A stretch of 64,000 nt of DNA, taken from assembly GCF_901538265.1 (NCBI RefSeq), contig NZ_LR593886.1, forward strand, positions 992,001 to 1,056,000. Direction: 5' to 3'. Below are positions 2,801 to 54,807 of this stretch, in pieces; the stretch's first letter is position 1; each line of letters starts with the position of its first letter. The stretch comes from Gemmata massiliana. Its GTDB lineage: Bacteria; Planctomycetota; Planctomycetia; Gemmatales; Gemmataceae. The notes beneath the pieces were generated by a model. The model had not been told where the DNA came from and made no database searches. It saw nothing but the letters and a program-made list of their open reading frames with translations. The translations under genes were made by a program, and so were the position numbers.

Positions 2801-5800
2801 TTGAACCCTCTCTCTCCCTCGCTGGCAACTTCTGCGCCCACTGACACTTATCGTCTGTTGGTCGAAGCCACCACGGACCTCGCGTTGTTCGCGCTCGATT
2901 CTGCCGGGCACGTCGTCACGTGGAACACAGGAGCCGAGCGGCTGACCGGGTACCCGCGCGAGGAAGTGGTTGGTCGCTCGTTTGCCGTTCTTTACTCCGC
3001 CAGTGCCAGCGCTGAACGATTGGAGCAGGTGCTCCGCACCGCATTGGAACACGGCCGCGTTGAACGGTTCGGGGCGTGGGCGGGAAGGGGTGGGGCAGCG
3101 TTCACCGCACGCACGGTAATTACGGCGCTATTCGACGAGGGCCACCACGTCGGGTTCGCGGTTGCACTTCGGGCCGAGAGCCCGCCCCAGGCACCACCCA
3201 AGCGGTCGGAACTCGAAGCCGAACTCCGCCGCCTCCGTGCGATCGTGGATCATACGGTTGACGGCGTGGTCGTTGCAGACACGGCGGGCAACCTTCTGGA
3301 ATGGAACCCTGCCGCCCTCCGAATGCACGGGTTCGCCGATCTCGATTCGGTTCGCCGCCACTTCTCGACGTTCGCTGACACGTTCGTCCTTTCTCCGCTC
3401 GGCGGGGAACCGTTGCCGTGTACCGAATGGCCGGTGTCCCGGCTGATTCGGGGTGAGAGCGTCGGCTGTGAGCTTCACGTTCGGCGGACGGACGTCGGGC
3501 GCGAGTGGATCATCCGGTACGACGGGACCGTGGTCCCGGACCCCGCCGGGGGGCCGGGGCTCGTCGTTCTCACGCTGCACGACGTGACCGAACAGCGCCG
3601 GGCCGAAGCGGACTCGCGCCGGTCTGCGGACCTGCTCCGGGCGGTGGCCGATGGTACGACCGACGCGGTGTTCGTGAAGGACCGGGACGGCAAGTACCTG
3701 TTGTGCAACGAGGCCGGTGCGCGCTGTGTCGGCAAAACAGTTGTGGAGGTACTCGGAACAGACGACGCCGCTCTGTTCGATCCCGAAAGTGCTCGGCAGA
3801 TCGCGGAGCGGGATCGGCGGGTCATGGAGTCGGGGCGCGCTGAAACGAGCGAGGAAGTTCTGACCGCGGCCGGTGTTACCCGCGCGTATCAAGCGACGAA
3901 GGCCCCGTACCGGGACGCGACCGGGGCCGTTATCGGTATCGTCGGCATTTCTCGCGACGTCACGGACCGGAAGCGGGCCGAAGAATCGCTCATCCTATTC
4001 CGGGCGCTCGTCGATCGAACGACGGACGGGATCGAGGTGATCGACCCGGAAACGGGCCGGTTCTTCGACGTGAACGAGAAGGCGTGTCTGATCCACGGGT
4101 ACACTCGGGCCGAGTACCTGACACTTGCCGTGACCGATGTCGACCCGCCCGGTGCGGCGCGCTCGGGGGCAGGGACCGCGGGCTCGAACGAAACGGGGAC
4201 TTTCGGGGGGCAGCGCCGTCGAAAGGACGGTTCGCTGTTCCCGGTCGAGGTCCGCGTGAACCGCGTCCGGTTGGACCGTGATTACTTGGTGGCGGTAGTC
4301 CGGGACGTGACCAAGCGGAAACGAGCTGAGGAGTCGCTGGAGCGGGCGCACGCGCTCCTGCGGACGTTAGTCGACGCGCTGCCCGATGCGATCTGGACCA
4401 AGGACGCGGACGGGCAGTTCGTCACCAGCAACCGGGCGCACAACGAGATGGTCGGGGCGCGGGCCGAATCGGACGTCATCGGGAAGACGGGGTTCGACTT
4501 CCACCCGCTGAAACTGGCACAGCAGTACCACGCGGACGACATGCGGGTTCTGCATTACGGCGAAACGGTGTTCAATAAGGAGGAACTGGTTCGGTGCCAG
4601 GGGCGGGACCGGTGGCACCTGGTTGTCAAAACGCCCCTGCGCGATCGGACCGGGGCCGTTACCGGTCTCGTCGGGATCAGCCGGAACATTCAGGATCTCA
4701 AGGACACCGAGGAGACGCTGCGAGCGAGTGAGGCCCGAACTAAGGCGGTGATCCAGACGGCCCTGGACTGCATCGTCGTGATCGATGCTCAGGGGCGCGT
4801 TCTGGAGTTCAACCCCGCGGCGGAGCGGGTCTTCGGGTACACCCGGGCGGAGGTGCTGGGGACCGAGATGGCGGAGCTGATTATCCCACCCGAGTACCGA
4901 GACGCGCACCGCGCCGGGATGATCCGCTACCTGACCACCGGGGAGGGGCCGGCTCTTGGGCGCCGGCTCGAATTGCCCGCGCTCCGCAAGGGCGGCGAGC
5001 GGTTTATTGCGGAACTGAGTATCGGGCGCAACCCGGGCGAACCGCCGACCTTTACCGGCTTCCTCCGGGACATCACCGATCGGAAGCGGGACGAAGAGGC
5101 ACTGCTCCTGGAGCGAGACCGCTTCGCTCGCCTCGCGGCCGTTTCGCCCGGCGTGGTCCACTCGCTCCGTGCGCGGCCGGACGGCACGCTCTGTTTCCCC
5201 TACGCCAGCCCTGGGATCGTGGACATTTACGGTGTTCCGCCGGAAGTGCTGGCCGAGGACGCATCGGTCATTCGCGCGTTGCTGTACCCGGAAGACGTCG
5301 AGCGCCTGGGGGCGATCCTGGCCGAGTCCGCTCGCACCATGTCGCTCTGGCACGTCGAGCACCGGGTCCGTCACCCGGTCAAGGGCGAGATCTGGGTCGA
5401 GGGGTGGTCCGCACCGGCCCGTGAACCGGACGGCGGTATTCTGTGGCACGGGGTGCTCACCGACGTCACCGAGCGGAAACGCGCCCAGGTCGAATTGGAC
5501 CGGCGGCGCGCGGAGCTGGAACTGATCCTCGACACGGTACCGGCCATTATTTTCTTCAAGGACCGCGCCCATCGATTGGTCCGCGTGAACCGAGAACTGG
5601 CCCGGCTCGTCGGCCGGCCCCGGGAGGAGCTTGAAGGGCGCACCGACGAGGAACTCGGGTCTCCGCACGCCGCCCGGTACCACCGGGACGAAGACGTGAT
5701 CATGGCCAGCGGGCAGCCGTTGTTAGGCGTGATCGAGCCGCTGTCCACCGTGACCGGAACCCGGTGGCTGCAAACGGACAAGGTGCCGTACCGCGACGAA

Positions 5801-22795: not shown

Positions 22796-23002
22796 CGCTT
22801 GCTCCCCAACTGCCCTTGGTGGCATTGTGTTTGTTTGATTAATTAGCCCCGCGGCAACCACTGGGCGCTTTTCGCTGAACACGAGCGCTTTGACTTTACG
22901 GCTTTCGACCTTACGACTTGTGACGGTCTCTGGTATTCTCTCAAAACGAGCCTCGCGGTGGCACTGGATAGGCTCGTTAAACTCAACCACCGCACGTCAA
23001 GC

Positions 23003-24112
23003 ATGTCCGACGCCAAGTTGCGTCACGCGATCGCGTTTGAAGCCGCTCGACTGATGTACGAGCGCGTCGAGTCCGAGTACTTCACCGCCAAGCGCAAGGC
23101 CGCCAAGCGCCTGTGTCGCGGCAGCGTCAAACCGAGCGACCTGCCCAGCAACGCGGAGATCCGCGATCAGGTGCAGGCGTTCGCCCGCGTCCACGAGGGT
23201 GAGGCGCGCACCGCGAACCTGCGCGACATGCGGGTTCACGCGCTGCGCCTCATGCGCGTGCTGTGCCGGTTCCGGCCGCGACTCATCGGCAGCGTGATGA
23301 CCGGGCACACCCGCAAGGGCTCGGACATCGACCTGCACCTCTTCAGCGACCACCTCGAACCGGTCACCGCGGCGCTCGACGAAGAGGGACTGCAGTACGA
23401 CGTGGAGCACAAGCAGATTACGAAGCACGGCGAGACCCGCGTGTTCACCCACGTTCACGTCTTCGACGTGTTCAACTTCGAGCTGACGATCTACGCGGAG
23501 AACCTCGCGCACTACGTGTTCAAGTCGTCGATTACGGGCAAGGCCATCGAGCGCGCCAGCACGCGCGAGCTCGAAGAGCTGATCACCCGCGAGCACCCGG
23601 AAATCTCGATCGAGGACGCGATCGCGGAGCAGGAAGAAGCGATCGACCCGTACCAACTGTTCCGGCTGTTACTGTTGCCGCTGGAAAACGTGAAGCAGAA
23701 CCCGAAGTACCACCCCGAAGGCGACGTGCAGTTCCACTCGCTCCAGGTGTTCGAGCTGGCACGCGACGAGCGCCCGTGGGACGAGGAGTTTCTGCAAGCG
23801 GCGCTGCTGCACGACGTGGGGAAGGGCATCGACCCTTACGACCACGTCGCCGCCGGACTTCAGGCGCTTGAGGGGCTTATCACCCCGCGAACCGCGTGGC
23901 TGATCGAGAACCACATGCTCGCACTGGAGTACAAGGCGGGAACGCTCGGCCACCGGGCGCGGAAGAAGCTGGAAGAGTCCGACGAGTTCGAGGACTTGAT
24001 GATCCTCCGCGACCTCGACACCCGCGGTCGCGTACCCGGGGCACAGGTCTGCACCGTGGACGAAGCGCTCGACTACCTCAAAGAGTTGGACCGACAAAGC
24101 AAGTGGAAGTAG
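23003..24112 (+). CDS. Nucleotidyltransferase-like and HD-domain protein
   Basis: ATG 23003 gives MSDAKLRHAIAFEAARLMYE. After a helical lead, residues about 85-190 contain the NTase signature GSVMTGHTRKGSDIDLHLF with the two Asp of the metal site. Residues about 245-340 contain an HD phosphohydrolase core: FHSLQVFELA, AALLHDVGKGIDPYDH and WLIENHMLALEY. This order recalls tRNA-nucleotidyltransferase/HD or GlnD-type proteins, but the poly(A)-polymerase RNA-binding region is not evident. It could add and remove a nucleotide from a target, or use small nucleotides. 369 aa, no operon partner except the thioesterase 120 bp downstream beyond a palindrome. Confidence 0.8.
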   Translation: MSDAKLRHAIAFEAARLMYERVESEYFTAKRKAAKRLCRGSVKPSDLPSNAEIRDQVQAFARVHEGEARTANLRDMRVHALRLMRVLCRFRPRLIGSVMTGHTRKGSDIDLHLFSDHLEPVTAALDEEGLQYDVEHKQITKHGETRVFTHVHVFDVFNFELTIYAENLAHYVFKSSITGKAIERASTRELEELITREHPEISIEDAIAEQEEAIDPYQLFRLLLLPLENVKQNPKYHPEGDVQFHSLQVFELARDERPWDEEFLQAALLHDVGKGIDPYDHVAAGLQALEGLITPRTAWLIENHMLALEYKAGTLGHRARKKLEESDEFEDLMILRDLDTRGRVPGAQVCTVDEALDYLKELDRQSKWK

Positions 24113-25931: not shown

Positions 25932-26104
25932 GTGACCGGTCCCCGTCGGGTATCGTCGGCGTGTGACGAGTGTGTTCGGTTCATATTAGGTGGAGCCGGC
26001 AAGGGGGTCAATTCAGTGGCCCGCGCCGGAACCGCACACTCGATCCAAAAACTCCCCTTTCCTTTTGCCTCCTTCGTGCATAAACTTCCCTCACGAAGAT
26101 AAGA

Positions 26105-26179
26105 CGCGGCGTGGAGCAGCCCGGTCAGCTCGCCAGGCTCATAACCTGGAGGTCGTAGGTTCAAATCCTACCGCCGCAA
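26105..26179 (+). tRNA. Initiator tRNA-fMet (CAT)
   Basis: The cloverleaf is complete: acceptor CGCGGCG pairs with CGCCGCA leaving the initiator-type C1:A72 mismatch. The D-arm is GAGCAGCCCGGTCAGCTC, the anticodon loop CTCATAA (CAT), and the T-arm GTAGG-TTCAAAT-CCTAC. The discriminator is A at 26179 and CCA is not encoded. The C1:A72 mismatch marks initiator rather than elongator Met. The accessory region begins right after it. Confidence 0.95.
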
Positions 26180-26183
26180 CTCC

Positions 26184-26232
26184 AAAACCCCGGAAAATAA
26201 GGCTCCTAATGAGCTGAGGTTTTCCGGGGTTT
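26184..26232 (+). terminator. Hairpin after tRNA-fMet
   Basis: AAAACCCCGGAAAA (26184-26197) pairs with TTTTCCGGGGTTT (26220-26232) across about 22 bases, with T residues continuing after. It is placed to end the tRNA transcript. Confidence 0.7.
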
Positions 26233-26258
26233 CCTCGTTTTCCGCCCATTCCGGGGTT

Positions 26259-26280
26259 TTAACTGCCACTTAACTGCCAC
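26259..26280. repeat. Tandem 11-mer TTAACTGCCAC x2
   Basis: Two exact adjacent copies of TTAACTGCCAC lie just beyond the fMet tRNA terminator. Short direct repeats beside a tRNA gene often belong to recombinase arm sites of integrated elements; that reading is inference. Confidence 0.5.
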
Positions 26281-26388
26281 GTCGTGCAGAACTGGCAATT
26301 TTCGCACTCCTCGGAATCGCTCTTTATGCCCAATCAAAGGACAATTAGCGGTACAAGGGATAAGGGATGCGAGTCCTTTTGGGTCGGT

Positions 26389-26619
26389 TTAGTGCATTAT
26401 TGCATTTGGGTAGTCCTTTGGGGTGAAATCTTCCGTGTCACGTGGAACTGGTGATTCCTGTCCGCGTGAACGGGCAAGGTCTCTGAGCAGTTTCTTGGGG
26501 CACGGCATGGCAGCGACCGCGCCGAGAAGGCCGAGTGCGACGGTGTTAAGAGACAGATGATCGAAGTGTTCTGGTCCTGCTTGTGTAAGTCTTGACGGAA
26601 TGAACAATTCCGGTCGCAT
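26389..26619 (-). CDS. Possible small hypothetical protein
   Basis: A 76-codon frame starts at ATG 26619 (MRPELFIPSRLTQAGPEHFD) and includes a hydrophobic stretch LSLNTVALGLLGAVAAMP. GC is lower than the genome average and no family is recognised. It lies in the junction zone between tRNA-fMet and the tRNA-Arg remnant. It may be a real small gene or a chance frame. Confidence 0.3.
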   Translation of the reverse strand: MRPELFIPSRLTQAGPEHFDHLSLNTVALGLLGAVAAMPCPKKLLRDLARSRGQESPVPRDTEDFTPKDYPNAIMH

Positions 26620-26679
26620 AAAAGCAGCTTCAATCACTTCGATAAACGGGAATTGCGAGATGTGGTTTAGGCCTTCGTT

Positions 26680-26722
26680 CTACGGAACCGAAGGTTGCAG
26701 GTTCGACTCCTGCTGGGTGTAC
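26680..26722 (+). pseudogene. 3' half of a tRNA-Arg gene (attachment-site scar)
   Basis: CTACGGAACCGAAGGTT matches an anticodon loop and the 3' side of the anticodon stem of tRNA-Arg. A perfect T-arm follows (GCAGG-TTCGACT-CCTGC), then a 3' acceptor strand TGGGTGT-A. The bases before 26680 do not form a D-arm or the 5' acceptor, so only the 3' half is present. A terminator hairpin follows, as after a real tRNA. Tyrosine recombinases use this half as attachment site. Confidence 0.75.
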
Positions 26723-26725
26723 TAG

Positions 26726-26753
26726 AAAAAGGCCTGGGAAACTGGGCCTTTTT
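26726..26753 (+). terminator. Rho-independent terminator after the tRNA-Arg remnant
   Basis: AAAAAGGCC pairs with GGCCTTTTT around TGGGAAACTG, with a T tract on the plus strand. It is a compact, strong hairpin in the position expected behind a tRNA gene. Confidence 0.8.
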
Positions 26754-27213
26754 CGTTTCTCGGCGACCTGTCAGAATCCGCTCCGTACCAAATTCCGTAC
26801 TAAACCCTGCCCTAAAAGTCCGGAGTTTGGTTCATTCCGGCACCACGTTCAGCCGGGCGAACTCCCAGGCCAGCGGGAGAATCGCGGCGTGTACCTGCGT
26901 GCGGCTTCGGGTTCGTCGGCGAAGTCGCTTTTGCTCTTCCAGTGACACGCCACCCACCGCTTCCCGTCACGCGAACCCCAGCCCTACATGAACCGTAACG
27001 TGCCAAGCCCGTCGCCAGCACTCTTCGATTCTGCGCGCTGGCGTCGAGACAGGAGTTGGTCCTGCGGCCGTTCAGAGTTGGTGCCGTAGAGGTGCGGCGG
27101 ATGACCTGAAAATCGTCCTTTCTTTCCCGGTTTTCTCCCATCTGACCTGCCCCGCACTTGACCCGTCGTATATCATCCTACCCCTCCCTTTCCACTCTTC
27201 CGGGGAGCAGACG
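26754..27213. other. Junction zone with a possible gene remnant
   Basis: There is no intact gene. On the minus strand about 26965-26832 a frame reads EAVGGVSLEEQKRLRRRTRS then HAAILPLAWEFARLNVVPE and TGA. It looks like the C-terminus of a lost protein, closed upstream by another stop. The promoter of the dGTPase gene should lie near 27150-27205, where GGGGAG at about 27202 can serve as ribosome site for ATG 27214. Confidence 0.4.
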
Positions 27214-28518
27214 ATGCCGATGGACTGGGACACCCTTCTTTGCGACCAGCGGTACCGCTGGATCGTGACGGGTAAGGTTCCGACGAGGAACCCGGAGGAG
27301 CTTCGTACGGAGTTCGAGAAGGACTACGACCGGGCGGTCTTCTCCACCCCGGTCAGGCGCCTTCAGGACAAGGCACAGGTCTTCCCGCTGGAGCCCTGCG
27401 ACGCGGTCCGCACTCGGTTGACCCACTCCCTCGAGGTCTCGACCGTCGCCCGCGACATGGCCAGGGCCGTGGCACGGTGGCTCGTTTACGAGAGGAAGGA
27501 AAAAATCACTGGAGCGGTTCCGAGCAAGGACCCAGTCCGCGACATCGAGACGATCGCCGCTACTTGCGGCCTCCTTCACGATCTGGGGAATCCGCCGTTC
27601 GGTCACTTCGGCGAAAGTGCCATTCAGGACTGGTTCGCCGCCCAAAAGGATGACATTTTTGAGGGCTGTGAGGGTGGCAAGGGGGGCGAGCTCGCGCAGG
27701 ATTTCCTCAAGTTCGAGGGAAACGCACAGACGCTTCGGCTGGTGTCAAAATTGCAGGTGCTGGCCGATGAGTACGGGCTGAACCTGACTTGCGGCACTTT
27801 GTCGGCCCTCTGCAAGTACACCGCATCGGCGATGCAGGCCGACAAGAAGTCGCCGAACCACGACTGGAGCAAGCCTGGGTATTTCGCATCGGAGCGGGAC
27901 TTGATCGAAACCGTGCGGAAGGCTACCGGGACGGGAGATGTCCGCAATCCGATCACCTTCCTCGTCGAAGCGTGCGACGACTTGGTCTACCGAACCGTAG
28001 ACCTCGAAGACGGTGTCAAGAAGGGTGCGGTGGACTGGCCGACTGCCGAAAAGATGCTCAGGGACCACGGCGGGGGAAAGGCGGACAACATCCTCAAGGG
28101 AACCTACGAGCAAGTCAGCAAAGTCGCAGGCAGCGTTGACACTCGGCAGTTCGGTGAAATCGCCGTCCAAGCGCTCCGCGTTCACACGATCGGAGCAGTT
28201 GTACCCGCGGTAATCAGGGCGTTCAAGGAGAGGTACACTGAGATCATGGAAGGGAAGTTCCGCGGCGACCTGACCGACGTCTGCGACCACAAGGAAGTTC
28301 TGGACGCCTTGGGAGATACCGTCAAGAAACATGTGCATACGACGCCCGACATCCTTCGACTGGAGCTGAGTGGCCGAAAGGTGATCCACGACCTGATGAC
28401 CCTGTTCTGGGACGGGGCGAAGAAGGGAGAAGAAGGGACTAAGAGCTACGAACAGAAGGCGTTTTCGCTGATTTCGAGCAACTATCGGCAGGCGTACAAG
28501 CACGCCCTTGAAAAAAAA
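27214..28518 (+). pseudogene. dgt: dGTP triphosphohydrolase-like HD protein, 3' end cut by an IS
   Basis: The gene encodes 435 of an original 469 residues before the insertion at 28519; the read-through frame ends as LGRQT at 28536. The HD signature is intact: RTRLTHSLEVSTVARDMA supplies the first His, CGLLHDLGNPPFGHFGE the HD pair and EACDDLVYRTVDLED the last Asp. Such enzymes split dNTPs to nucleosides and triphosphate, and some bacterial dGTPases protect against phage by draining dNTPs. The lost 34 residues resume at 30184, after the element. Its original stop overlapped the next gene, so the pair formed a tight operon. The truncated enzyme may still be active because the catalytic core is kept. 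Confidence 0.85.
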
Positions 28519-30183
28519 CTAGGCCGGCAAACGTAACTGGTTCATAAGTGGCCAATTTTGTAGGCTTTGGGTCACCGAACGGGGATGGCCCATGAAGACG
28601 GCGAAGACGGCCGAGCCGACGATCACTCACGACCTGACGCCCGAGCGGACGACGTGCCCGCGGTGCGCCCGGCCGATGACCGCCGACTACGCCAACCGCC
28701 GCACCCTTCACACCCTGACCGGTGTGACCCGCCTCAATCTGACCATCCGACGGTGCCACAACACCGCCTGCGTGGCCCACAAGAAGCCGTACCGGCCCGA
28801 GGCCGAGGGCTCGTTCGCGCTGCCGCGGCATGAGTTCGGGCTCGACGTGGTCGCTCTCATCGGGCGCCTGCGGTACGCCGAGCACCGGTCCGTCCCCGAG
28901 ATCCGCGCGCACCTCGTTGGGCGCAAGGTGACGGCGTCCGAGCGCACCGTCACCAACCTCCTGGACCGGTACGACGAGTTGCTTGCCACGTCCCTCACCG
29001 ACGACGGACGACTCAAGGCAGTGCTGGCCGCCCAGGGGAAGGTGATCCTGGCCATCGACGGATTACAGCCGGACGTCGGGCACGAGATCCTGTGGGTCAT
29101 CCGGGACGTGCTCAGCGGCGAGATCCTGCTGGCCAAAAGTCTGTTGTCCGCCCGCAACCAGGATCTCGCCGAACTGCTGTCGGCGGTGAAGACCGCGTGC
29201 GGGGTGCCGGTCACCGGCGTCATCTCCGACGGGCAGCACTCGATCCGCAAGGCGGTGGCCAAGGCGCTCCCCGGCGTGCCCTACCAGTTGTGCCAGTTCC
29301 ACTTCCTGCGCGAGGCCGCCGGGGCCATTTACGAGGCCGATCGGCACGCCAAGGTGGCACTGAAGAAGAAGGTGCGCGGGGTGCGCCAGATCGAGCGCAA
29401 GGTCGAGGGGCGAACCGATCCCGAGGCCGATGTCATTCGCGGGTACTGCTCGGCGGTGCGCAGCGCCATCACCGACGACGGGCGCCCGCCCCTGGAGGCG
29501 TCGGGGTTGAAACTCCACGCCCGGTTAAGCGCGGTGGTCGTGAGCCTGAGCCGGGTGAAGGCGAAGGGGGCGCGGCGCCCGAGTTGACGCGCCTGGAGGG
29601 GATCTTGTGCGACGCCTTTCGGACCGCCGGCGGCGCGTTCGCGCCGGTGTACCTGGCGTTCGGGTGGGTCCACCAGGCGGCCCACATCCTGGGGCGGATC
29701 GAGTTGACCGGTGCGGCGGTTCGGCGTCGGTTGAGCGGGTTGCTCGGAGCCATGACGCGGCACCGGGGCGTAGTCGGCGAGTTGAGCGGCGCGGTGGACC
29801 ACTTCGTGAAGGTGAGTCGGAGCTACTGGGGCGGGCTGTTCGGGTGCTACGACACGGCGGGGCTGCCGCGGACCAACAACGACCTGGAGCGGGCGTTCGG
29901 GAGCCACCGGTACCACGAGCGCCGGGCCACCGGGCGTAAAGGGGCATCGCCGTCACTGGTACTGCGGGGCGCGGCCAAGTTGGTGGCCGGGCTGGCGACG
30001 CGGCACCGGGAGGTCACGGCCGCCGAACTGGCGGGCGCGGATCGTGTGGCGTGGAAGCGGTTACGGGCCGAACTGGAGACGCGGCGTGAGCGACGGACCG
30101 AGCGGAGGCGGTTCCGACGCGATCCCGAGGGCTATCTGAAAGCCCTCGAAAACAAGCTCATCCAGTTACGTTTGCCGGCCTAG
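28519..30183 (+). mobile_element. Insertion sequence with 22-bp inverted repeats
   Basis: The left end CTAGGCCGGCAAACGTAACT (continuing GG) is the exact complement of the right end, which begins CCAGTTACGTTTGCCGGCC and ends at TAG. Both ends abut A tracts (8 A on the left, 7 A on the right), consistent with a target duplication of about 7-8 bp. Removing the element and one A tract restores the dGTPase frame. The element is 1665 bp and carries a single transposase split into two frames. The family is not certain from sequence alone. Confidence 0.9.
28592..30183 (+). CDS. DDE transposase read through a -1 frameshift
   Basis: Frame A (28592-29587) encodes a zinc-finger-like N-terminus (TTCPRCARPMT ... 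RRCHNTACVAHKKPY) and the first catalytic Asp residues in VILAIDGLQPD and VTGVISDGQHSIRKAV, followed by YQLCQFHFLREA. Frame B, shifted by -1 and open from 29092, carries the rest: LEGILCDAFRTAGGAFAPVY ... RTNNDLERAFGSHRYHERRA with the probable catalytic Glu, and ends inside the right inverted repeat. The join is best placed at the run AAGGGGGCG near 29567, giving about 530 aa. The architecture recalls MULE/IS256-like transposases. Programmed slippage or a simple mutation are both possible. Confidence 0.75.
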
Positions 30184-30295
30184 AAAAAAAGCTCTGCCAC
30201 CCCGGTATCACCAGTTGCAGCTCGTGACGGACTACATCTGCGGGATGACGGACTCCTTCGCCTGCGACCTACACAGGCAGCTCACCAATGGCTGA
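30184..30295 (+). pseudogene. dgt: C-terminal remnant of the interrupted dGTPase
   Basis: After the IS, a frame starting with the A tract reads ALPPRYHQLQLVTDYICGMT then DSFACDLHRQLTNG and TGA at 30293. LQLVTDYICGMTDSFA is a typical dGTPase C-terminal helix. Joined to residue 435 it completes the protein. The stop overlaps the ATG at 30288 (AATGGCTGA). Confidence 0.85.
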
Positions 30296-31112
30296 GGCAG
30301 CGGTCGAGAAGCTGAACGCATTACTCTGGGAGCGCATCGACGCGTTCTTGGCTCGCAGCCGCACGTCGCACGGCCTCTACGGTGATGTCGTTCACAGGCT
30401 GGCGCTTCGCCGCCGGACCGCAGTGCTGTTCGGAGGGGCGCTGCGAGACCTCATGGCGTCCGGGGAGAAGGCCGAACCGCGTGACCTCGATCTCGTCCTC
30501 GACTCTCCGCTCGGAGACGACCTCCCAGGGGCGGGGGTCGAGAACCGTTTCAACCGCTTCGGCGGGCGTCGGCTGAAGGACGGCGAGTACGAGATTGACC
30601 TATGGCCACTCGCCCGGACATGGGCGTTCCACGCCCTCGGAATTGGGTCGCGGGACTTCACCGATCTCCCGCGGACGACGTTCCTGAACGTCGAGGCTTT
30701 GGCCGTTCGCCTGGGGGCGTCGGCGAGGCGACTGGGTCCGTGGGACGAGGCCTTCTTCCGCGGTTTCCTCGACCGGATGGTTGAGGTGAACCTCGAAGAC
30801 AACCCGAATCCCTTGGGCTGCGTCGTTCGCTCACTGGTGACTACCCACAAACTCGGCTTCTCGATGGGGCCGAAGCTCGTTTCCTATATCCACCGGCATA
30901 CGCGAGGGAGGGATCTCGAAGAGTTGGTCAACTTCCAAACGTTGCACTATGGACGCGTCATCCTGCCTCTCGGGCAGCTCGCGGTGATCCGGACGGCGGT
31001 GCGAGACCACCTGCGGACGTGCCGCTCTGCCCCGTTCAGGTATTTCGCGGCCCACGGGACTCATCGACGAGTGTCAGCGGTTCGTGAAGAGTGGTGGCGT
31101 CGGCTGGTCTGA
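30288..31112 (+). CDS. Pol-beta-fold nucleotidyltransferase
   Basis: The protein has 274 aa. The NTase signature is complete: AVLFGGALRDLMASGEKAEP, RDLDLVLDSP (two metal-binding Asp) and a third acid in YEIDLWPLA. The remainder is helical (FFRGFLDRMVEVNLEDNPNP, GCVVRSLVTTHKLGFSM), like the core of CCA-adding/poly(A) polymerases but shorter. It overlaps the dGTPase stop by 8 bases, so the two were translated together. It could modify tRNA ends or a protein, or make a nucleotide signal; the sequence does not say which. The last 77 bases overlap a convergent Cys-rich gene. Confidence 0.8.
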   Translation: MAEAAVEKLNALLWERIDAFLARSRTSHGLYGDVVHRLALRRRTAVLFGGALRDLMASGEKAEPRDLDLVLDSPLGDDLPGAGVENRFNRFGGRRLKDGEYEIDLWPLARTWAFHALGIGSRDFTDLPRTTFLNVEALAVRLGASARRLGPWDEAFFRGFLDRMVEVNLEDNPNPLGCVVRSLVTTHKLGFSMGPKLVSYIHRHTRGRDLEELVNFQTLHYGRVILPLGQLAVIRTAVRDHLRTCRSAPFRYFAAHGTHRRVSAVREEWWRRLV

Positions 31113-31260
31113 TCCCGTCTGGGCGGGCCACCCGGATCGGCACCGGTTCACACCCGCAGCACGCCTCGCACAGCAGGCAACGGTTACAGTACTCTGTCAT
31201 GCACCCGCACGGAACGAGCGAGTGGCCGAGGCGGCGTTCGCAGCAGTGGCAGCGGATCAT
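31036..31260 (-). CDS. Cys-rich mini-protein (probable zinc binder)
   Basis: The protein has 74 aa. GGGAGG lies about 8 bases before ATG 31260. The first 38 residues hold eleven Cys: MIRCHCCERRLGHSLVPCGC, then EYCNRCLLCEACCGCEP. The spacing of paired Cys suggests two treble-clef or ribbon zinc sites. The tail is polar. It begins 49 bp after the end of the methylase gene on the same strand and may be its co-transcribed partner. It overlaps the 3' end of the convergent NTase gene. No family recognised. Confidence 0.6.
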   Translation of the reverse strand: MIRCHCCERRLGHSLVPCGCMTEYCNRCLLCEACCGCEPVPIRVARPDGIRPADATTLHEPLTLVDESRGPRNT

Positions 31261-31309
31261 TGGTTGGCCTCCCGGCTTTTCACTCCGCTACTCTGCTACC
31301 GCCTGTACC

Positions 31310-34300
31310 TCACGCAAACAGGTTGAGCAGGGGCAGCCGGTCAGCGCGTCGGTTGCCACGCCACAGATCGTAAAGGACGCCGTCGGGGGTGCCGACATCC
31401 ACCTCTTGGTAGAAGATCGTCTTCACCGGGGAACGGCCGGCGAGCAGGACCGAAGGAACCAGCGAGCCTCCCCCGGTTTCACAGAGGTAGTGGGCTTGGT
31501 ACTTGAGGTTGTCGGCCCAGCCGGTGAAGACCTTGTCGTCGTTCGAGCGGATCAGGTAGACGCCAGGGCGTTCGGGTAGCCTGGCCTCGGCCTGCGTTGC
31601 CGGAATCGGGTTGTCGAACAGGCTCGGCGGGGCCTGCCCCTTCTCGCCGGCGCGCTTGCGGAGCGTCATTGCCGTCCACCGATAGTCAAGGACGGAGAAC
31701 TGGTACTCGGCCTTTTTCATCAACTCGCCGATCAGGTCGTCAAACCTCTGACGCCATTCCGGGATGCAGAGGATTCGCTCAAGGGTCGTCGCCTTGCGTT
31801 GCCCCGTTTCTTCCCGCACCTGGTCGATGATGTGCCGGTACGCCCACTCGACAACGAACTCGTAGCGCCGGATCTTCGAGTCCGGCGTGTACGTTTTGCT
31901 CTTCGGAAGGTGGGCGAGTTGGCCATCGCGACGGGCGTTCCACAGCTCTCGATTCGCGATCTCCTCCGTGACGCCGGGGACCAGCGTCTCTGCCTGGCGG
32001 AGGTAACGAGCGTTGGCGTCGGGTGAGCACACGACGTATTCGGACGACCAGCCGGCCCGCGTCTCGACGAACGCCTGGATGAGGCGCTCCCTACGGGACG
32101 GCACCACGGGGAGGCCGAACAGATCCTTCGGCATCGGGACGCCGGGCGGCGGGTCGAGTTGCGAAGCGAACACGGTCTGCCCGGTCTGGTCAGCGACGGC
32201 CTCCTGCATCTCCTGGTAGCAGCGGAGAATCATCTCCTTCGTGCGGTAGGTGCCGAAGCGTTCTTCGTCCTTCTGCCGCACGATGGGGAAGGTGTCCAGG
32301 ATGTAGTCGGCGTCGGCCTCGCTGATGCCGTATAGATGGAAGAAGGCGGCATCGAGTTCGGCCCGGATCACTGCCCTACGGGCGTCGTCCCAAAAAAAGG
32401 GATCTCCAGGGTAGCCGCAATCTTCGGCGAACGGCTTCAAGTCGTGTGCGGTGTACGTCACCTCCAGGACACGAGGCTTGATCCACTCGCCGAGCGTTTT
32501 CGAGCGATCCCAGAAACATGGCTGCTGGTAATGGCTGGGTGGAAAGGCCGGCAACTGTTTCATGATGAAAAAACTGAAACTCGCTCCGCCAAGCTTTTGT
32601 CGCACAACGTAGTCAAAGACGAACGAGTTTAGGTTGGCTAAAAGCAGTGCCTGTTGCCCAGGTGAGGCTTCGAATGGCAGTATTAATGGAGCCTTGTTGC
32701 TGACGCCGGATTTCGGAAGGACGGCATGCATAGCAGTGCGGATGTCAGTCGCACGTGCGATCTCTCGGAAAATGATGAAGAATCCCTGGCCCCATTCAAC
32801 CCGTTCAAGTCGCTCCTTCACTGCATCCTCGGGAACCCAGTACCTGGGCAACACCAAGAAATGAGGATCCTGATGCTCTTCCAGCGTTGTGGACTGAGCT
32901 GGAATGCCGCTCAATTCGGCAACGTCTTCTGAACCCACGATGCTTCCGTACCGGTGGTCGAAGATGCTCGTCATCTTCGCTTCGTAGAGGGGGAGATATT
33001 TTGCGTCATCTTTGCAGTATTGATTGCCCTTGAGCTGCCAGCCGTCCAATTCCAAGTCCGCGCCAACACGGAACAATCCAGAGTCATTGGCCATGTGAAA
33101 CATCGCCCTCAGGCGAATCGCCCAGGGATTCACTTCAGGCGGCCCTTCGTTTAGTAGCACCGGCACTTGTTGGTAGATGGCTTTGGTTAGCTTCGCATCA
33201 CGTGCTGTCCGAAACACAGGGCAAGTGCGAGTGTTCGGGTTCAACAGAATAAGATCATTCGGGGTCAGAGTGAATCGCTTGGTCGGCTCGGCTAGCTCCT
33301 CGACAGAGCGTGCGTCGAAAACGAACTCGGAAACAGCTACCCTTCTCATATCACCAACAAGAGTAAGCAAGCAGAATGGATCCCGGCTATCCGTGGCCGG
33401 AAAGACGAGTCGGATCTCGAAGAAGCTGAAAAGGCTTACCAGAGACTGCCTTGTTACCAGATCTTCAAAGAATAATTTCGTTGTGTCAGTTGTGGCGATT
33501 CCGCTCGGGACGATACAGCCGACACGTCCCGTTGGTCGGAGCAGGTTGCGGTTCAATTCGGCGAACAGGCTGTAGGTGTTCACATCTCCGCGACCGCAGA
33601 GCGGGAATAACCCTCGCCGTTCGTTGCTATCCTCATCGATGCCGGAACTGTCCCGGACGAGGTGGCTTTCGCCCTCGGCCTTGCGGCGGTCGTCGAGGAA
33701 CGCTCGGTACAAGGCCGCGTCTTTCGTCTCCAATTCCCTGATGAGCTTACCACGGATCGACGCTGTGCGAGCCCCGGCGATATCCGGTCGTCCGTGAGCA
33801 GCGAACCACTCTTGTTCTTGTAGCTTGATCCGCTCCCACGGCGGGTTGCCGAGCACTGCGTCAAATCCGCCGCACCAGCCGGTCAACTCGTTGTCGGGGG
33901 CTTCACCCTTTGCCGGGTAGCGGAACACCGCGGGGAAGGCCAGCAGCCAGTGGAAGAACTGGTACTGCCCGGCGAGTCGACGGACCTCGGCGAACTCCTG
34001 CGGCACGATGTCGTGCGGGTTCATTTCGATCCGCCGGAACCGGGCGTGCGTCATCGGCAGCAGGTTGTCGTCTTTAACCTTCTTCCACACGAAAGCGGCA
34101 CACCATGCATCGGCAAGGAACCGGCCCGACGTGCGGTAGGCGTCGTCCGATCTCACCAGGTCAGCGTACCGGCGTTCTTTTTCGCGGATGCTTTCGACGG
34201 TATCATCCGGCAGCCCTTCGAGTTTTGCCATTGCGGCGGTCAAGTCGCCGAGCTGTCTTCTCTCTTCGATCTCGTCGAATAAGCCTTCCTGCCCTCGGCG

Positions 34301-34492
34301 TTCGTCCTTATTCTGCCGCTTCAGCCCCGAGCAGACCTTCTTGTCGTCGCCCTCGATCGGCTCGAACGCCTCGTCCGGGATACCTTTCGCCAGTAGAGCC
34401 GGAGTGGTGCCGAGCAAGCTATTGCCGCACTGGATGTGGTGTTCAAGGAACGAAAGCGGCTTTCCAATTAGCTGTTCGACCCGCCGCGCCAT
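31310..34492 (-). pseudogene. Truncated Eco57I/PglX-like N6-adenine DNA methyltransferase
   Basis: The open frame runs to 34651, but homology begins near GKPLSFLEHHIQCGNSLLGT (codon about 34465), so ATG 34492 is a plausible start. GGFDAVLGNPPWERIKLQEQ is methylase motif IV (NPPW). RVGCIVPSGIATTDTTKLFF and SLFSFFEIRLVFPATDSRDP are family-typical, and a long target-recognition part follows. The region that should precede, with the AdoMet motif I, is missing, so it cannot methylate as it stands. The C-terminus (RPGVYLIRSNDDKVFTGW) resembles the start of a GIY-YIG domain. Full relatives belong to type IIG, BREX or DISARM-like systems. The 5' break lies where the divergent GIY-YIG gene begins. Confidence 0.75.
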
Positions 34493-34619
34493 CCGGGGCT
34501 GCGCGAACGTCAGGCGGACTCGGCCACGATGGCGCGCATTACTTCCTTTTCCGCGATTGCGGTCACTGGTGGGCTGAGCGATAATCCCTCCCCAACTTCC
34601 CCGCGGCGGTAACAGCAGA

Positions 34620-35498
34620 ATGAGCCTCACTGCCCAACGCCCATTCTCCATTCACATATTCCTTCCTGATGGCACGCCCGACGGGGTCCGGGTCGTCGAG
34701 AAGGACAACTGGCTGGGCGTGGGGTTGGTATGCCCGCGCGCCCGGTTTCCGGACGCCAAATCACGGCCCGAGTTCAACAGGCCGGGGGTGTACGCACTCA
34801 TCGGCCCGTCCGAAGAGAGCGACCTACCTAAGGTGTACATCGGCCAGGGGGATACCGCACTCCCGCGCCTCGAACAGCACTTTTCCAAGAAGGACTTTTG
34901 GACCTCGCTGATTCTGTTCGTGAGCCAGACCGACTTTCTCGACAAGACCCGCATCGAGTACCTCGAATCGCGCCTCTGTGCTCTGGCGGGCGAGGCCAAG
35001 CGGTGCGTGTTGGACAACAAGCAGGCTCCGCAACTCCCGACTCTCTCAGAAGCGGCGCAAGCCGCCGTAAACGGGTTCCTCGAAGAGATGCTGCCCATTT
35101 ATCCGCTGCTCGGTGTCACGGCGTTCGAGAAGCCGCAGGTGATGCGTGTGGAGGTGACCCACTACGTCCTGCGGGCAAGGGGCATCGAAGCCCGCGGCTA
35201 CGAGGAAGGAAGCGGCTTTGTCGTACTGGCAGGGTCGCAGGTGGCGAATGATTTCGTGCCATCGGCTGCGACTTACCTCCAAACACTTCGCGCTGCGTTA
35301 CAAGAACAAGGAGTCATCGCCGACCGCGGAGACGGACTGAAGCTGACTCAAGACTACACGTTCGACTCTCCTTCGACCGCAGCCGGGGTGGTAATCGGAC
35401 GCACTGTAAACGGCCGTGAGACATGGCGCGATGAAGCCGGGAAAACGCTGAAAGAGAACCAGAGCCACGGCACAGAGGGCAACGGAGAGACCGTGTAA
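34620..35498 (+). CDS. GIY-YIG nuclease-family protein with DUF4357
   Basis: The protein has 292 aa. Residues about 58-110 carry the GIY-YIG core: RPGVYALIGPSEESDLPKVY with IGQGD following, and a conserved Arg in LPRLEQHFSKKDFW, then acidic ESRLCALA. The C-terminus DYTFDSPSTAAGVVIGRTVN then GRETWRDEAGKTL matches DUF4357, often found with GIY-YIG in accessory regions. Members are probably nucleases whose targets are not known. It diverges from the truncated methylase and may have replaced its 5' part. The central region (VEVTHYVLRARGIEARGYEE) is also present in such two-domain proteins. Confidence 0.85.
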   Translation: MSLTAQRPFSIHIFLPDGTPDGVRVVEKDNWLGVGLVCPRARFPDAKSRPEFNRPGVYALIGPSEESDLPKVYIGQGDTALPRLEQHFSKKDFWTSLILFVSQTDFLDKTRIEYLESRLCALAGEAKRCVLDNKQAPQLPTLSEAAQAAVNGFLEEMLPIYPLLGVTAFEKPQVMRVEVTHYVLRARGIEARGYEEGSGFVVLAGSQVANDFVPSAATYLQTLRAALQEQGVIADRGDGLKLTQDYTFDSPSTAAGVVIGRTVNGRETWRDEAGKTLKENQSHGTEGNGETV

Positions 35499-35544
35499 AA
35501 GAGAAAGCGCTCGCCCACCCAACGACCATACGCTCAACGAACAC

Positions 35545-36429
35545 ATGAATGCGTTTTGTCCAACCGCGAAAGCCGTGGAGTCACAGATGCACACGCCCGT
35601 TGACCTGACGCGTGGTGGGTACAAAGGCGATACCACCGAAGAGGCGTTCAAGTCCGACACATCAAAGGCTCTCAGCTACTGGTGGCACTTCCGCGAGGTC
35701 CTGCGCGCGTCGCATACCCGCAACCCGAATTGGGTCCGTCTCGATGGGACTCCGCTCGATGACGAGGGGCAGCAAAAACTCGTGGCCTTGAGCCTGTTGA
35801 ATTACGCAGCCTATACCGGCTTTGCCGGGGCAATCGCTGCACGGGATGGCCTCGTCTCCATGCTCAACGGGCCGCGAGAATCGCACCTTCGCCTTCCATT
35901 CGAGTTGCGGCGGCGATGGAAGGAGGCGTATGGCAGTCTCTACTCCTCCTTCGCTGCACTCCTCAATCTCGTCTGCATTCTATCAGAGCCGTCGCAGCCA
36001 CTTATAAAGGGTGACAAAGTCACAACCTACAACTTCGACGACCGGGTGAAGAACTCGTTGACCACGAAGGGCGGAGGCTTGGCTCGTGCGCGAATCGCTC
36101 TTGAACAAGTTCACGCCTGTCTGGAGATTCGCACCCAGCTCGACCACTACTGGTTAATTTGGACGGAGCTGCGCCCCGAAGGACTCTTTATGGACGGGAG
36201 TTTCGGGAAGAAGGGGCACATCCCACTCGACGGGCCTTCGTCGTGCAATGTCAACGTCGTCGCGAGATTGTCCCAGGATATCAACGCGACCGCCGGAAAC
36301 TTCGACTCGGTCTACCGAGAACTCGCCGTCACAGACGGTTACTTGGACCAGCTCTTCACGAAGAACAACTGGCAGGTCAGGTACGACGACTACGGTCTGC
36401 CTCATAACGGCGCGCGCCCCCGGCCGTGA
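35545..36429 (+). CDS. Hypothetical protein of the accessory region
   Basis: ATG 35545 opens 294 aa; ATG 35587 (MHTPVDLTRGGYKGDTTEEA) is an equally good start. The product is soluble, alpha-helical and rich in aromatic residues: SKALSYWWHFREVLRASHTR, LLNYAAYTGFAGAIAARDGL, RWKEAYGSLYSSFAALLNLV. No motif is recognised. It lies 46 bp behind the GIY-YIG/DUF4357 gene, in the same direction, so the two may act together. Confidence 0.6.
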   Translation: MNAFCPTAKAVESQMHTPVDLTRGGYKGDTTEEAFKSDTSKALSYWWHFREVLRASHTRNPNWVRLDGTPLDDEGQQKLVALSLLNYAAYTGFAGAIAARDGLVSMLNGPRESHLRLPFELRRRWKEAYGSLYSSFAALLNLVCILSEPSQPLIKGDKVTTYNFDDRVKNSLTTKGGGLARARIALEQVHACLEIRTQLDHYWLIWTELRPEGLFMDGSFGKKGHIPLDGPSSCNVNVVARLSQDINATAGNFDSVYRELAVTDGYLDQLFTKNNWQVRYDDYGLPHNGARPRP

Positions 36430-36447
36430 TGTCGCCATGCCAACACC

Positions 36448-36717
36448 CACATCTTCGCGGTCCACGGTTGCTCGCGAGCCGGCTTCTCGGTCATCCGGGT
36501 GGATGTGCTCGAACCCGTCGGTCCCGTCGAGTTCCGCGGGCTCGTACCCTAGGAGCCGGGCTCCCGACCGGGTCGCGCCTCGTACCGTTCCGCCGGAGTC
36601 GAAAAAGAGAGCGGCACCGAGGCACTTCTCGATGACGGCCCGGAACCGGGTCTCGGCACTGAACGCTCCCGCGCCGGGTTCGTAGCTCCGGTACACGGGA
36701 CGAGAAGAGGCGGCCAT
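36448..36717 (-). pseudogene. PAS-domain remnant of a sensor kinase
   Basis: ATG 36717 opens MAASSRPVYRSYEPGAGAFS, then a PAS unit: RFRAVIEKCLGAALFFDSGG, RLLGYEPAELDGTDGFEHIH and PDDREA. It is similar in layout to the first PAS of the intact kinase at 38180-40870 (RFLGYEPAGIFGTDGLSYVH). After HPDDREA the frame degenerates and no kinase follows. It is a decayed copy or a fragment brought by rearrangement. Confidence 0.65.
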
Positions 36718-37046
36718 GTTTGATTGACCTGAGTTGACGGTCGGCGAACCATCAAGGCAATTGCCCCCCGGGCGCTCATTACAAGCAGAATCGTGCAATC
36801 TCCTTCCTTGCAGTAACGACGTGAGAAACCGAGATTCTTGTACGCGCCGCACGGTCGGTCACGGATAAAGGACGAAGGGACCGTGCGCCGTCGCGAACGA
36901 GACATCGCTCGACCAGGGACACGCATCAGACGGTTGCCCGCCCTCGACCGTGTTTCAGCCGAACCAAAAGAGCGGGTTCGGGCTCTCGAATCATGGGAGC
37001 GTCGCGCCGGAAATCGGCGCTTTTTATTTTCAGTTGCGAGGGGAGC
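36718..37046. other. Intergenic region with an inverted repeat
   Basis: No gene is visible. GCACGGTC (36849-36856) pairs with GACCGTGC (36879-36886) across 22 bases, a possible weak terminator or protein site. AGGGGAGC near 37036-37043 is the ribosome site of the next gene. Confidence 0.4.
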
Positions 37047-37496
37047 ATGAGTCTGCACGACGAACTGAAGAATCGCGTCACCGCCGCTGTGAAGGGCGGG
37101 GACACGTTGACCCGGGACGCGTTGCGAACGGTGCTCGGGGAGGCACAGGCCGAAGCCGTTCGGCGCAAGACCGAAGCCACGGACGAAGTCGTCCTCGCCG
37201 TCGTGAAGAAAACGGTCGCCGGGCTGAAGGAGACGATTCCCCTGGCGAAGCAAGCGGGCCGTGACACCACCCAGCAGGAAGCAGAACTGGCTCTACTAGA
37301 ATTGCTTTTGCCCAAGTCCTGGGACCAAGAGACCATCGCCGCCGCGCTCGCCCCGCACCGGGACGAACTGCGCGCGGCCAAAAACGACGGGCAGGCAATG
37401 GGGGTGGCGATGAAGATACTCAAATCAAAGGGAGCGGTCACCAACCCGGAAGATGTCAAAGTAGCGGTTGCAGCGACGCGGTCTGAACATCCCTGA
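37047..37496 (+). CDS. GatB/YqeY-family protein
   Basis: The protein has 149 aa; ATG 37047 follows GAGGGGAGC. MSLHDELKNRVTAAVKGGDT, TLRTVLGEAQ-like helix, VVLAVVKKTVAGLKETIPLA, LLELLLPKSWDQETI and AMKILKSKGAVTNPEDVKVA follow the YqeY plan (helical lead plus a tail domain like that of GatB). GatB tail domains bind tRNA in the amidotransferase. Free YqeY proteins have no settled role. It is a core-type gene inside the accessory region. Confidence 0.8.
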   Translation: MSLHDELKNRVTAAVKGGDTLTRDALRTVLGEAQAEAVRRKTEATDEVVLAVVKKTVAGLKETIPLAKQAGRDTTQQEAELALLELLLPKSWDQETIAAALAPHRDELRAAKNDGQAMGVAMKILKSKGAVTNPEDVKVAVAATRSEHP

Positions 37497-37633
37497 TGCG
37501 GAGCTACTCATTTGTCAAGTTGAGAGAGCTCACTTTGGCCAAATGAATGGCATCAATGGCATCTTGTAGTTCGTCCGGGCGGCGACTTTCCCGGTCGACG
37601 CCTCAAACACGGTTCTGGTGTGAGATTCCCTGC

Positions 37634-54079: not shown

Positions 54080-54122
54080 CTACGGAACCGAAGGTTAGAG
54101 GTTCGACTCCTCCTAGGTGTAC
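54080..54122 (+). pseudogene. 3' half of a tRNA-Arg gene, second copy (attachment-site scar)
   Basis: Compared with 26680-26722, 40 of 44 aligned bases are the same when one extra base on the right is counted: CTACGGAACCGAAGGTT is exact, then the T-arm AGAGG-TTCGACT-CCTCC (now with a mismatch) and TAGGTGT-ACT. No 5' half precedes it. It lies 116 bp before a recombinase start codon, the usual place of attL. Confidence 0.75.
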
Positions 54123-54237
54123 TCGACTTAAATCCTTTCGCCGAATCAGTTTCTGCTTACCTCAGCATGTGCTGGGCGCGGCTTCCAAACGACGGGTTTC
54201 GTGGAACGTTCCATGAAACTCCCGAGGAACCGCAGCA

Positions 54238-54750
54238 ATGCCACGTCCCCGTAAACTTGCTCCGCGCTATCTGAAACATTCCAAAAGTGGCAAAGGTCGC
54301 TTGGTTTGGACGGATGCCGTCGGCGTCCGGTACGAGAGGTTACTTCCCGGTCCCTTCGGTTCACCCGAATCACTCGCAGCAAAAGCGCGTCTGGAACTGG
54401 AGTTAGCTACTTCACCAACCAACACCCCTGCCGCTCCAGATCGCATCACTGTCGCTGAAGTAATTCTGGCCTTCCACAACTTCGCCGTCCGCCACTACCT
54501 CGATCTCGATGGGCTGCCGACCAAAGAACTGCTTGTGATCCGGTACGCGCTGCGCCCACTGCGCGAACTGTATGGCACCTCTCGGGCGACCGAGTCCGGC
54601 CCGTTGAAGCTGAAGACGGTGCGCCAACGCATGATCGATACGAAACTGTCGAGGGCTTTAATCAACCGCCGCGTCTCCGTGTTCAAGTGGGCTGCGAGTG
54701 AGGAACTCATTCCCGCGAGTGTTTACGACGGGTTGCGGACCGTGTCCCGA
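54238..54750 (+). pseudogene. Tyrosine recombinase (integrase), N-terminal fragment
   Basis: ATG 54238 opens MPRPRKLAPRYLKHSKSGKG RL. The part up to about residue 170 fits the arm-binding and SAM-like core-binding domains of phage-type integrases: RITVAEVILAFHNFAVRHYL, RYALRPLRELYGTSRATESG, and LINRRVSVFKWAASEELIPA with VYDGL. The catalytic domain with R...HxxR...Y is absent; after TVSRS the frame runs into the 3' end of the opposite kinase gene (stop at 54808). The integrase was cut by the incoming sigma/kinase block or by deletion. Confidence 0.8.
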
Positions 54751-54807
54751 TCGAATTCCTCGTGGGCAGACGGCCACGGACTCGGGCCGCTTCGTCCCGA
54801 CGTTGCG

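What the first reader, a model, noticed from the sequence alone, without database searches (positions are those of the whole stretch)
27214..31112. dGTPase-nucleotidyltransferase operon, a candidate nucleotide-based defence pair, interrupted by an IS
Seen: an HD dGTPase-like gene whose original stop overlaps (AATGGCTGA) the start of an intact Pol-beta-fold NTase. They lie next to a DNA methylase, a GIY-YIG protein and tRNA att scars. Known: bacterial dGTPases can block phage by depleting dNTPs. Inference: the NTase might modify a tRNA or make a signal linked to the dGTPase. I know of no described two-gene system of this composition.
Basis: partly seen in the sequence, partly recalled or inferred. 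Interest (0 to 1): 0.72.

Follow-up and report, generated by a model that had tools for sequence, protein, structure and literature searches.

The report
IS-broken Clover anti-phage defence pair
The two genes look like a distant copy of Clover, a recently described bacterial defence in which one enzyme starves phages of a DNA building block and its partner holds it in check; in this genome a jumping gene has cut the tail off the first enzyme.

Summary
An HD dGTPase (27214-28536) is cut near its 3' end by a 1,665-bp IS (28519-30183). Its severed C-terminal piece (30185-30295) overlaps the start of an intact 274-aa nucleotidyltransferase (30288-31112) by 8 nt. The remark that no such system is described is out of date: the pair matches Clover (CloA dGTPase + CloB NTase; bioRxiv July 2025, PMC12265719).

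Evidence: the dGTPase's best solved-structure match is CloA. The NTase is homologous to the protein beside E. coli cloA (32% identity, E 3e-22). Of 10 other records with a strong NTase match, 10 have a dGTPase directly upstream; of 12 control dGTPases, 0 have the NTase. An intact copy in the same genus lies between an Argonaute pair and type I-G cas genes.

Most likely the NTase made a dinucleotide (p3diT or a relative) that held the dGTPase off until phage infection raised dTTP. This allele has lost C-terminal dTTP-site residues and is probably dead. New here, as far as searched: copies in planctomycete-type and Cytophagales genomes, changed base-reading residues, and a probable second, unrelated IS in cloA of a family relative.

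The parts
27214..28518 (+). cloA (dGTPase) main piece, native residues 1-435; catalytic HD/HE residues present
   Evidence: TIGR01353 284 bits; best PDB match 9p8t (CloA) E 1.8e-74, 254 bits, against 171 bits for the best non-CloA chain, 4x9e; catalytic residues 6 of 6
28519..30183 (.). insertion sequence, 1,665 bp, 22-bp perfect terminal inverted repeats, transposase split over two frames
   Evidence: only weak matches to transposase families (Transposase_mut 3.2e-4; IS256 1.5e-6, 27.5 bits against a cut-off of 150)
28519..28540 (+). left terminal inverted repeat of the IS; the truncated dGTPase frame stops inside it (28534-28536)
   Evidence: ORF end
30162..30183 (-). right terminal inverted repeat of the IS
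30185..30295 (+). severed C-terminal piece of cloA; holds the equivalents of the dTTP-site residues T449 and Y452 (here F)
   Evidence: family profile match at window 30188-30286, E 5.2e-6; frame read; residues
30288..31112 (+). cloB-like nucleotidyltransferase, intact, 274 aa; D66/D68 and D104 invariant among 9 rows
   Evidence: 32% identity over 182 residues, E 3e-22, to the E. coli CloB-type protein; hhalign of that protein to a 7-row alignment that includes this NTase, E 1e-32; invariant columns; fold
31310..34651 (-). neighbour: Eco57I-type methylase / type IIG-like protein (context, not part of the pair)
   Evidence: Pfam PF07669 3.9e-9; PADLOC REase_MTase_IIG 1e-20
   Evidence: Pfam PF14267 1.3e-19; PADLOC 9.9e-93

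Best explanation
The pair is a Clover (CloA-CloB) anti-phage system of a planctomycete-type lineage whose CloA gene has been cut by a recent IS. Inferred mechanism when intact, by homology to the published system: the NTase (CloB) joins two deoxynucleotides into a linear 5'-triphosphorylated dinucleotide (p3diT in Salmonella) that sits at the dGTPase dimer interface and keeps it off. A phage that raises dTTP overcomes this, and the dGTPase destroys dGTP, starving phage replication. Shown here: homology of both proteins, operon order, conservation of catalytic residues and of most allosteric-site residues, and the break. Inferred: the signal's identity, dTTP sensing, defence. In this genome the cut removes the C-terminal part with two dTTP-site residues, so CloA is probably inactive and CloB is left without a working target.
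For: Published system: (PMC12265719). dGTPase: best PDB matches are the four CloA chains (9p8t E 1.8e-74, 254 bits; best other chain 171 bits). NTase: 32% identity, E 3e-22, to the 250-aa protein that overlaps E. coli cloA, whose CloA scores 635 bits against Salmonella CloA; hhalign E 1e-32 over 232 columns. Linkage: 10 of 10 other records with a strong NTase match have a dGTPase directly upstream (2 Phaeobacter plasmids with identical copies, Amylibacter, Cytophagales, 3 Planctomycetales, 3 genomes of the host's genus or family), against 0 of 12 control dGTPases. The same 8-nt overlap is in 7 of 7 Planctomycetales, Cytophagales and host-family records and in the window. Tree: the 11 NTase-linked dGTPases lie on one side of a branch (77/79); the window is in a 7-row set with 100/99 support. 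Residues: catalytic 6 of 6, p3diT site 7 of 10, pre-IS part of the dTTP site 6 of 6; the 12 controls score 3-6 of 10 and 2-5 of 6. An intact copy in the same genus lies between pAgo_II + Aga_Helical-REase and Cas8g/Cas3g/Cas56g/Cas7g.
Against: Support for a single NTase-linked side of the tree is only moderate (77/79, under the tool's own mark of 80). The p3diT-pocket score does not separate cleanly: two NTase-linked Planctomycetales rows score 6 of 10, as do two controls, and one control (L038) reaches 5 of 6 at the dTTP site. In the window N75 is T, T25 is P and R34 is K. The three Planctomycetales copies follow a topA gene, which is no obvious defence island. The published CloB sequences themselves were not compared. 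No experiment; this allele is broken.
Confidence: 0.87

Rival explanations
1. A Clover relative whose NTase makes a different dinucleotide or oligonucleotide from p3diT, read by a changed pocket in the planctomycete/Cytophagales branch.
For: Phosphate-contact positions R29, R34, R38 and N181 are kept in the rows of this branch that cover them (R34 is K in the window), while base-reading N75 is T, S or H in the planctomycete-type rows that cover it and Q311 is A or R in five of the seven planctomycete-type rows and N in the Cytophagales row.
Against: The window and L021 keep Q311, and D37 is kept in every row of the branch that covers it; R29 and R38 are also common in controls. A distantly related Xanthomonas CloB makes the same p3diT (PMC12265719).
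Confidence: 0.2
2. The NTase is a tRNA-modifying (CCA-adding-like) enzyme and the dGTPase is an unrelated housekeeping enzyme.
For: The modelled fold is closest to CCA-adding and related tRNA-processing enzymes (Z 13.9, 216 aligned, 4.3 A). A tRNA-Met lies about 1 kb upstream of the pair.
Against: A dGTPase partner in 10 of 10 other strong records; homology to the E. coli CloB-type protein; another dGTPase elsewhere in the genome.
Confidence: 0.04
3. A toxin-antitoxin pair used for maintenance rather than phage defence, with the dGTPase as toxin and the NTase as its keeper.
For: In Clover, CloA without active CloB is toxic (PMC12265719). The NTase model has a weak fold match to MenT1 (Z 5.3-5.5).
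Against: The MenT1 match is far below the CCA-enzyme match (Z 13.9); the homologous pairs tested in the preprint defend against phage.
Confidence: 0.05

Closest known systems
Clover anti-phage system (CloA/CloB), PMC12265719
   Same: Two genes in the order dGTPase then NTase; both proteins homologous; catalytic residues kept; most p3diT and dTTP pocket residues kept; an intact relative sits among defence genes.
   Different: 34% identity to Salmonella CloA; planctomycete-type and Cytophagales hosts, words not found in the preprint's main text; 8-nt gene overlap; some base-reading residues changed; cloA cut by an IS in this genome.
Single-gene anti-phage dGTPase (Shewanella SpdGTPase type; PADLOC dGTPase, NF041026)
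   Same: HD dGTPase family; PADLOC model PDLC02374 matches (E 1.4e-62).
   Different: An NTase partner is present; below the NF041026 cut-off (164 against 400 bits); 9p8w scores 74 bits against 254 for CloA (that 9p8w is SpdGTPase is my inference from the deposit series).
CCA-adding enzymes and related tRNA nucleotidyltransferases
   Same: Modelled fold of the NTase over about residues 6-240.
   Different: Shorter (274 aa against 342-517 for the CCA-adding and tRNA-processing chains among Foldseek's first 40); no Pfam match; found next to a dGTPase.

Membership tests
Clover (CloA/CloB) | CloA: HD-family dGTPase with HD metal site and HE dyad | tested here: met
   H69, H117, D118, H126, E129, D242 all conserved; shared by the 12 control dGTPases too
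Clover (CloA/CloB) | CloA-type rather than housekeeping or solo dGTPase | tested here: met
   Best PDB matches are CloA chains; on the NTase-linked side of the tree (77/79) and in a 7-row set with 100/99
Clover (CloA/CloB) | CloB: homologous Pol-beta NTase with [D/E]h[D/E]..h[D/E]h motif | tested here: met
   32% to the E. coli CloB-type protein, E 3e-22; RDLDLVL with D66/D68, and D104, invariant in 9 rows. The published Salmonella CloB sequence was not at hand
Clover (CloA/CloB) | adjacent two-gene operon, CloA first | tested here: met
   8-nt overlap with the severed piece; 10 of 10 other strong records paired
Clover (CloA/CloB) | p3diT pocket of CloA | tested here: inconclusive
   7 of 10 residues identical; N75 to T, T25 to P, R34 to K; controls 3-6 of 10, NTase-linked rows that cover all ten 6-10 of 10
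Clover (CloA/CloB) | dTTP-activation site of CloA | tested here: inconclusive
   Pre-IS part 6 of 6; in the severed piece T449 is kept and Y452 is F; F also in the NTase-linked Phaeobacter protein. Severed from the main ORF here
Clover (CloA/CloB) | octamer, dTTP activation, p3diT synthesis, phage defence | not testable with these tools
   needs protein and phage work
Single-gene anti-phage dGTPase (NF041026) | score over the curated cut-off | tested here: not met
   164 bits against 400
CCA-adding enzyme | nucleotidyltransferase head plus tRNA-binding parts (recalled) | tested here: inconclusive
   Fold match over about model residues 6-240 only; no Pfam match at E 0.1

The most novel reading that the evidence does not exclude
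The planctomycete/Cytophagales branch of Clover uses a different inhibitory dinucleotide from p3diT: its CloA pockets keep the phosphate-contact positions but change the thymine-reading ones (N75, Q311). In addition, cloA in this host family is repeatedly knocked out by unrelated insertion sequences while cloB stays intact, a natural record of CloA's cost.
Probability: 0.2. Interest if true: 0.55.

Novelty: new member of a known kind. Interest (0 to 1): 0.38.

Why it matters
It extends Clover to planctomycete-type and Cytophagales genomes. The CloB-like protein is missed by the Pfam, NCBIfam and PADLOC copies used here, so such pairs are easily under-annotated. It gives a divergent branch in which to test whether the inhibitory signal is always p3diT. 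Two IS disruptions of cloA with cloB intact, among three host-family copies that can be judged, fit the published toxicity of CloA without CloB and suggest that selection removes the effector; three copies are too few for proof.

Tried and rejected
Viral contigs: five scans (window NTase, Phaeobacter NTase, two NTase alignments, Salmonella CloA) found no relative. Phage records: no NTase match; 12 phage-collection records with a dGTPase match were not checked for a neighbour NTase. Plasmids: only the two Phaeobacter records. Genome contigs: 70 stretches matched a pattern, 5 were confirmed; the two strict peptide patterns must miss many relatives, so this is no census. Phylum sample with the single NTase sequence: 1 of 392 strong (own) plus one weak, G171. 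Class of the Amylibacter genome: 1 of 385 strong (itself) plus two weak. Relatives with the 9-row profile A4: 4 strong of 99, own included, plus one weak.

Rows dropped before the linkage count: the four weak hits (L002, L025, L026, L037). None has a dGTPase in the fetched flank; three lie in frames of 391-406 aa, and L002 gives no match to the profile. The E. coli copies (4 fetched of 111 genomes hit; each match covers 16-19% of the cloA query in the 20 rows listed) were found through cloA DNA and are not counted. Two of the nine rows of A4 are E. coli NTases found that way, so the three host-family records are not wholly independent of the dGTPase; the other seven records were found with NTase sequences alone. 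The ten plasmid-collection controls were picked by me from the 61 records other than Phaeobacter.

tRNA modification as the main function: judged unlikely (see rivals). Close att repeats round the pair: none of 18 nt or more with a 13-nt seed in 26000-37500, apart from a pair inside the IS. A sequence search for solved structures of the NTase found nothing up to E 1. Tree caveats: long branches of the own second dGTPase and of E. coli Dgt; the fragment L050 was left out.

Literature: PMC12265719 was read in part: outline, parts 1-3 of 8 of the text, Extended Data and figure legends, and one word find; its supplementary table was not read. PMC8649781: passages only (it lists dGTPase of type PRK05318 and CBASS NTases as separate Tn7 cargo). 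All other papers were seen only in search listings with the starts of their abstracts. That planctomycete or Cytophagales Clover is unreported rests only; of these only 107 and 124 used a planctomycete term.

Confidence in the best explanation was lowered from 0.88 to 0.87 because the pocket scores overlap with controls.
Full report
Observation. The dGTPase ORF runs 27214-28536 and the NTase ORF 30288-31112 on the + strand. The dGTPase belongs to TIGR01353 (284 bits against a cut-off of 152). It is cut by an IS of 1,665 bp at 28519-30183 with 22-bp perfect inverted repeats. Two other full copies in the genome differ from it by 0 and 2 bases, so the insertion is probably recent; each copy lies in an A or T run with a 7-bp direct repeat (flanks). 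The truncated frame keeps native residues 1-435 and runs five codons into the IS before it stops. The rest of the gene, 30185-30295, still matches the end of the family profile (E 5.2e-6) and overlaps the NTase start by 8 nt. The genome has at least one other dGTPase, at C1:1389645-1390724.

What it is. A literature search found a described system of this composition: Clover, a dGTPase (CloA) plus an NTase (CloB) (parts 1-3 of 8 of the text and the legends read). The window dGTPase's best solved-structure matches are 9p8s-9p8v (254 bits for 9p8t), above the best other chain, 4x9e (171 bits), which shares its sequence with 6oiy, the E. coli Dgt entry named in the paper. That 9p8s-9p8v are the CloA deposits is my inference. 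With an offset of two, 36 of the 37 residues named in the paper that I checked carry the named letter (the paper's Q377 is E in the chain), and 9p8v has alanine at both positions of the H126A/E129A mutant.

NTase homology to CloB. The NTase matches no Pfam, NCBIfam or PADLOC family. A blastn search with Amylibacter cloA DNA hit 111 of 5,426 E. coli genomes. In the four regions I fetched, a dgt gene lies between flhB and cheZ and is overlapped by a 250-aa 'hypothetical protein'. One of those dgt products scores 635 bits against Salmonella CloA. Its partner has a D61/D63 pair, one of the two numberings the paper gives for the catalytic CloB residues (D71/D73 in the text and Figure 1, D61/D63 in the Figure 3 legend). 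It aligns with the window NTase at 32% identity over 182 residues (E 3e-22) and with the 7-row NTase alignment at hhalign E 1e-32. I did not have the published CloB sequences themselves.

Linkage. Ten other records have a strong NTase match: two Phaeobacter plasmids with identical copies, five loci from Amylibacter, Cytophagales and three Planctomycetales, and three genomes of the host's own genus or family. In 10 of 10 a dGTPase ORF lies directly upstream; in L050 it is cut by the contig end and in L049 probably by an IS. The first seven were found with NTase sequences alone; the profile held two E. coli NTases found through cloA. In the seven Planctomycetales, Cytophagales and host-family records the genes overlap by 8 nt, as in the window; in Phaeobacter and Amylibacter there is a gap of 8 and 9 nt, and in E. 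coli an overlap of 32 nt. As a control, ten plasmid-collection dgt genes picked from 61 records, E. coli K-12 dgt and the genome's own second dGTPase have no NTase in the fetched flanks (0 of 12). Four weak NTase hits have no dGTPase and were dropped.

Tree and residues. Among 23 dGTPases, the 11 with an NTase lie on one side of a branch (support 77/79, moderate), and the window row sits in a 7-row set with 100/99 support. Catalytic residues are 6 of 6 in the window row, as in the controls. Of the ten p3diT-contact residues named in the paper, seven are identical (R29, D37, R38, F41, N181, Q311, R314); R34 is K, N75 is T and T25 is P. The 12 controls keep 3-6 of 10, but two NTase-linked Planctomycetales rows also keep only 6. 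Of the dTTP-site residues before the IS, 6 of 6 are kept, against 2-5 in controls. In the severed piece T449 is kept and Y452 is F; F is also found in the NTase-linked Phaeobacter protein. The paper reports that Y452A abolishes dTTP-driven hydrolysis and defence, so an allele without this part is probably dead; that is inference.

Fold. The AlphaFold model of the NTase (pLDDT 82.3, pTM 0.82) matches CCA-adding and related tRNA-processing enzymes best (Foldseek E 1.8e-7; Z 13.9 over 216 residues), with FAM46 chains lower (best Z 10.4). A shared fold shows a nucleotidyltransferase, not a tRNA function.

Context. In the window the neighbours are an Eco57I-type methylase and a DUF4357 protein that is the PADLOC candidate PDC-S14. 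In a genome of the same genus (L048) the intact pair lies between a pAgo_II with an Aga_Helical-REase and a run of Cas8g, Cas3g, Cas56g and Cas7g; a CRISPR array was not looked for. In Phaeobacter and Amylibacter a DUF5131 gene and a second gene (annotated TcmP in Phaeobacter; PADLOC candidate PDC-M30A in Amylibacter) precede the pair. Against a plain defence-island picture, the three Planctomycetales copies follow a DNA topoisomerase I gene (3 of 3); the gene after the pair in two of them has no Pfam match, and the third contig ends soon after the pair.

A second disruption. In L049 (same family, another genus) a seven-residue match to the cloA start lies at 4840-4860 (tblastn E only 1.0), the main part begins at about 5790, and an IS4/5-type transposase (4883-5728) lies between. 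I read this as a second IS in cloA; the short match alone would not prove it. Of three host-family copies that can be judged (window, L048, L049), two thus have cloA cut by unrelated ISs with cloB intact. This fits the published toxicity of CloA without CloB, but three copies prove nothing.

Mechanism and confidence. The best reading is Clover: CloB's dinucleotide holds CloA off, phage-raised dTTP turns it on, dGTP is destroyed. Homology, order and residues are shown; the signal, the sensing and the defence are inferred. I call it a new member of a known kind. The preprint's text names proteobacteria, Bacillus, Clostridia and Myxococcia, and its main text does not hold the words Planctomyc-, Gemmata, Bacteroidota or Cytophag-; its supplementary table was not seen.

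Noticed in passing
window 26680-26723 and 54080-54123: A 44-nt tRNA 3'-half (by eye) occurs twice, 40 of 44 identical, 27 kb apart; the right copy lies just before an ORF (54238-54891) that has no Pfam match. Possibly remnants of integration sites.
   Followed up: partly
window 28519-30183; L006, L008: The IS has two further full copies that differ by 0 and 2 bases, each in a run of A or T with a 7-bp direct repeat, and the transposase is split over two frames in the same way in all three; its family is unclear.
   Followed up: partly
L049:4840-7147: cloA of a family relative looks split near its start by an IS4/5-type element, with cloB intact.
   Followed up: partly
L003:2367-5866 and L019:2402-5991: A DUF5131 (Gp37/Gp68) gene and a TcmP-type gene directly precede the pair on the Phaeobacter plasmids and in Amylibacter; in Amylibacter both match PADLOC candidates PDC-M30/M41. 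Possibly a four-gene unit.
   Followed up: partly
E. coli, between flhB and cheZ (L027-L030): A Clover-like pair sits at the same chromosomal site in four of four regions fetched, of 111 genomes hit among 5,426.
   Followed up: partly
L021-L023: In three Planctomycetales genomes the pair follows a DNA topoisomerase I gene, a stable place unlike a defence island.
   Followed up: partly
window 22958-24109: A 384-aa protein with an HD match and a weak NTP_transf_2 match, that is, NTase and HD in one chain, 3 kb upstream of the pair.
   Followed up: no
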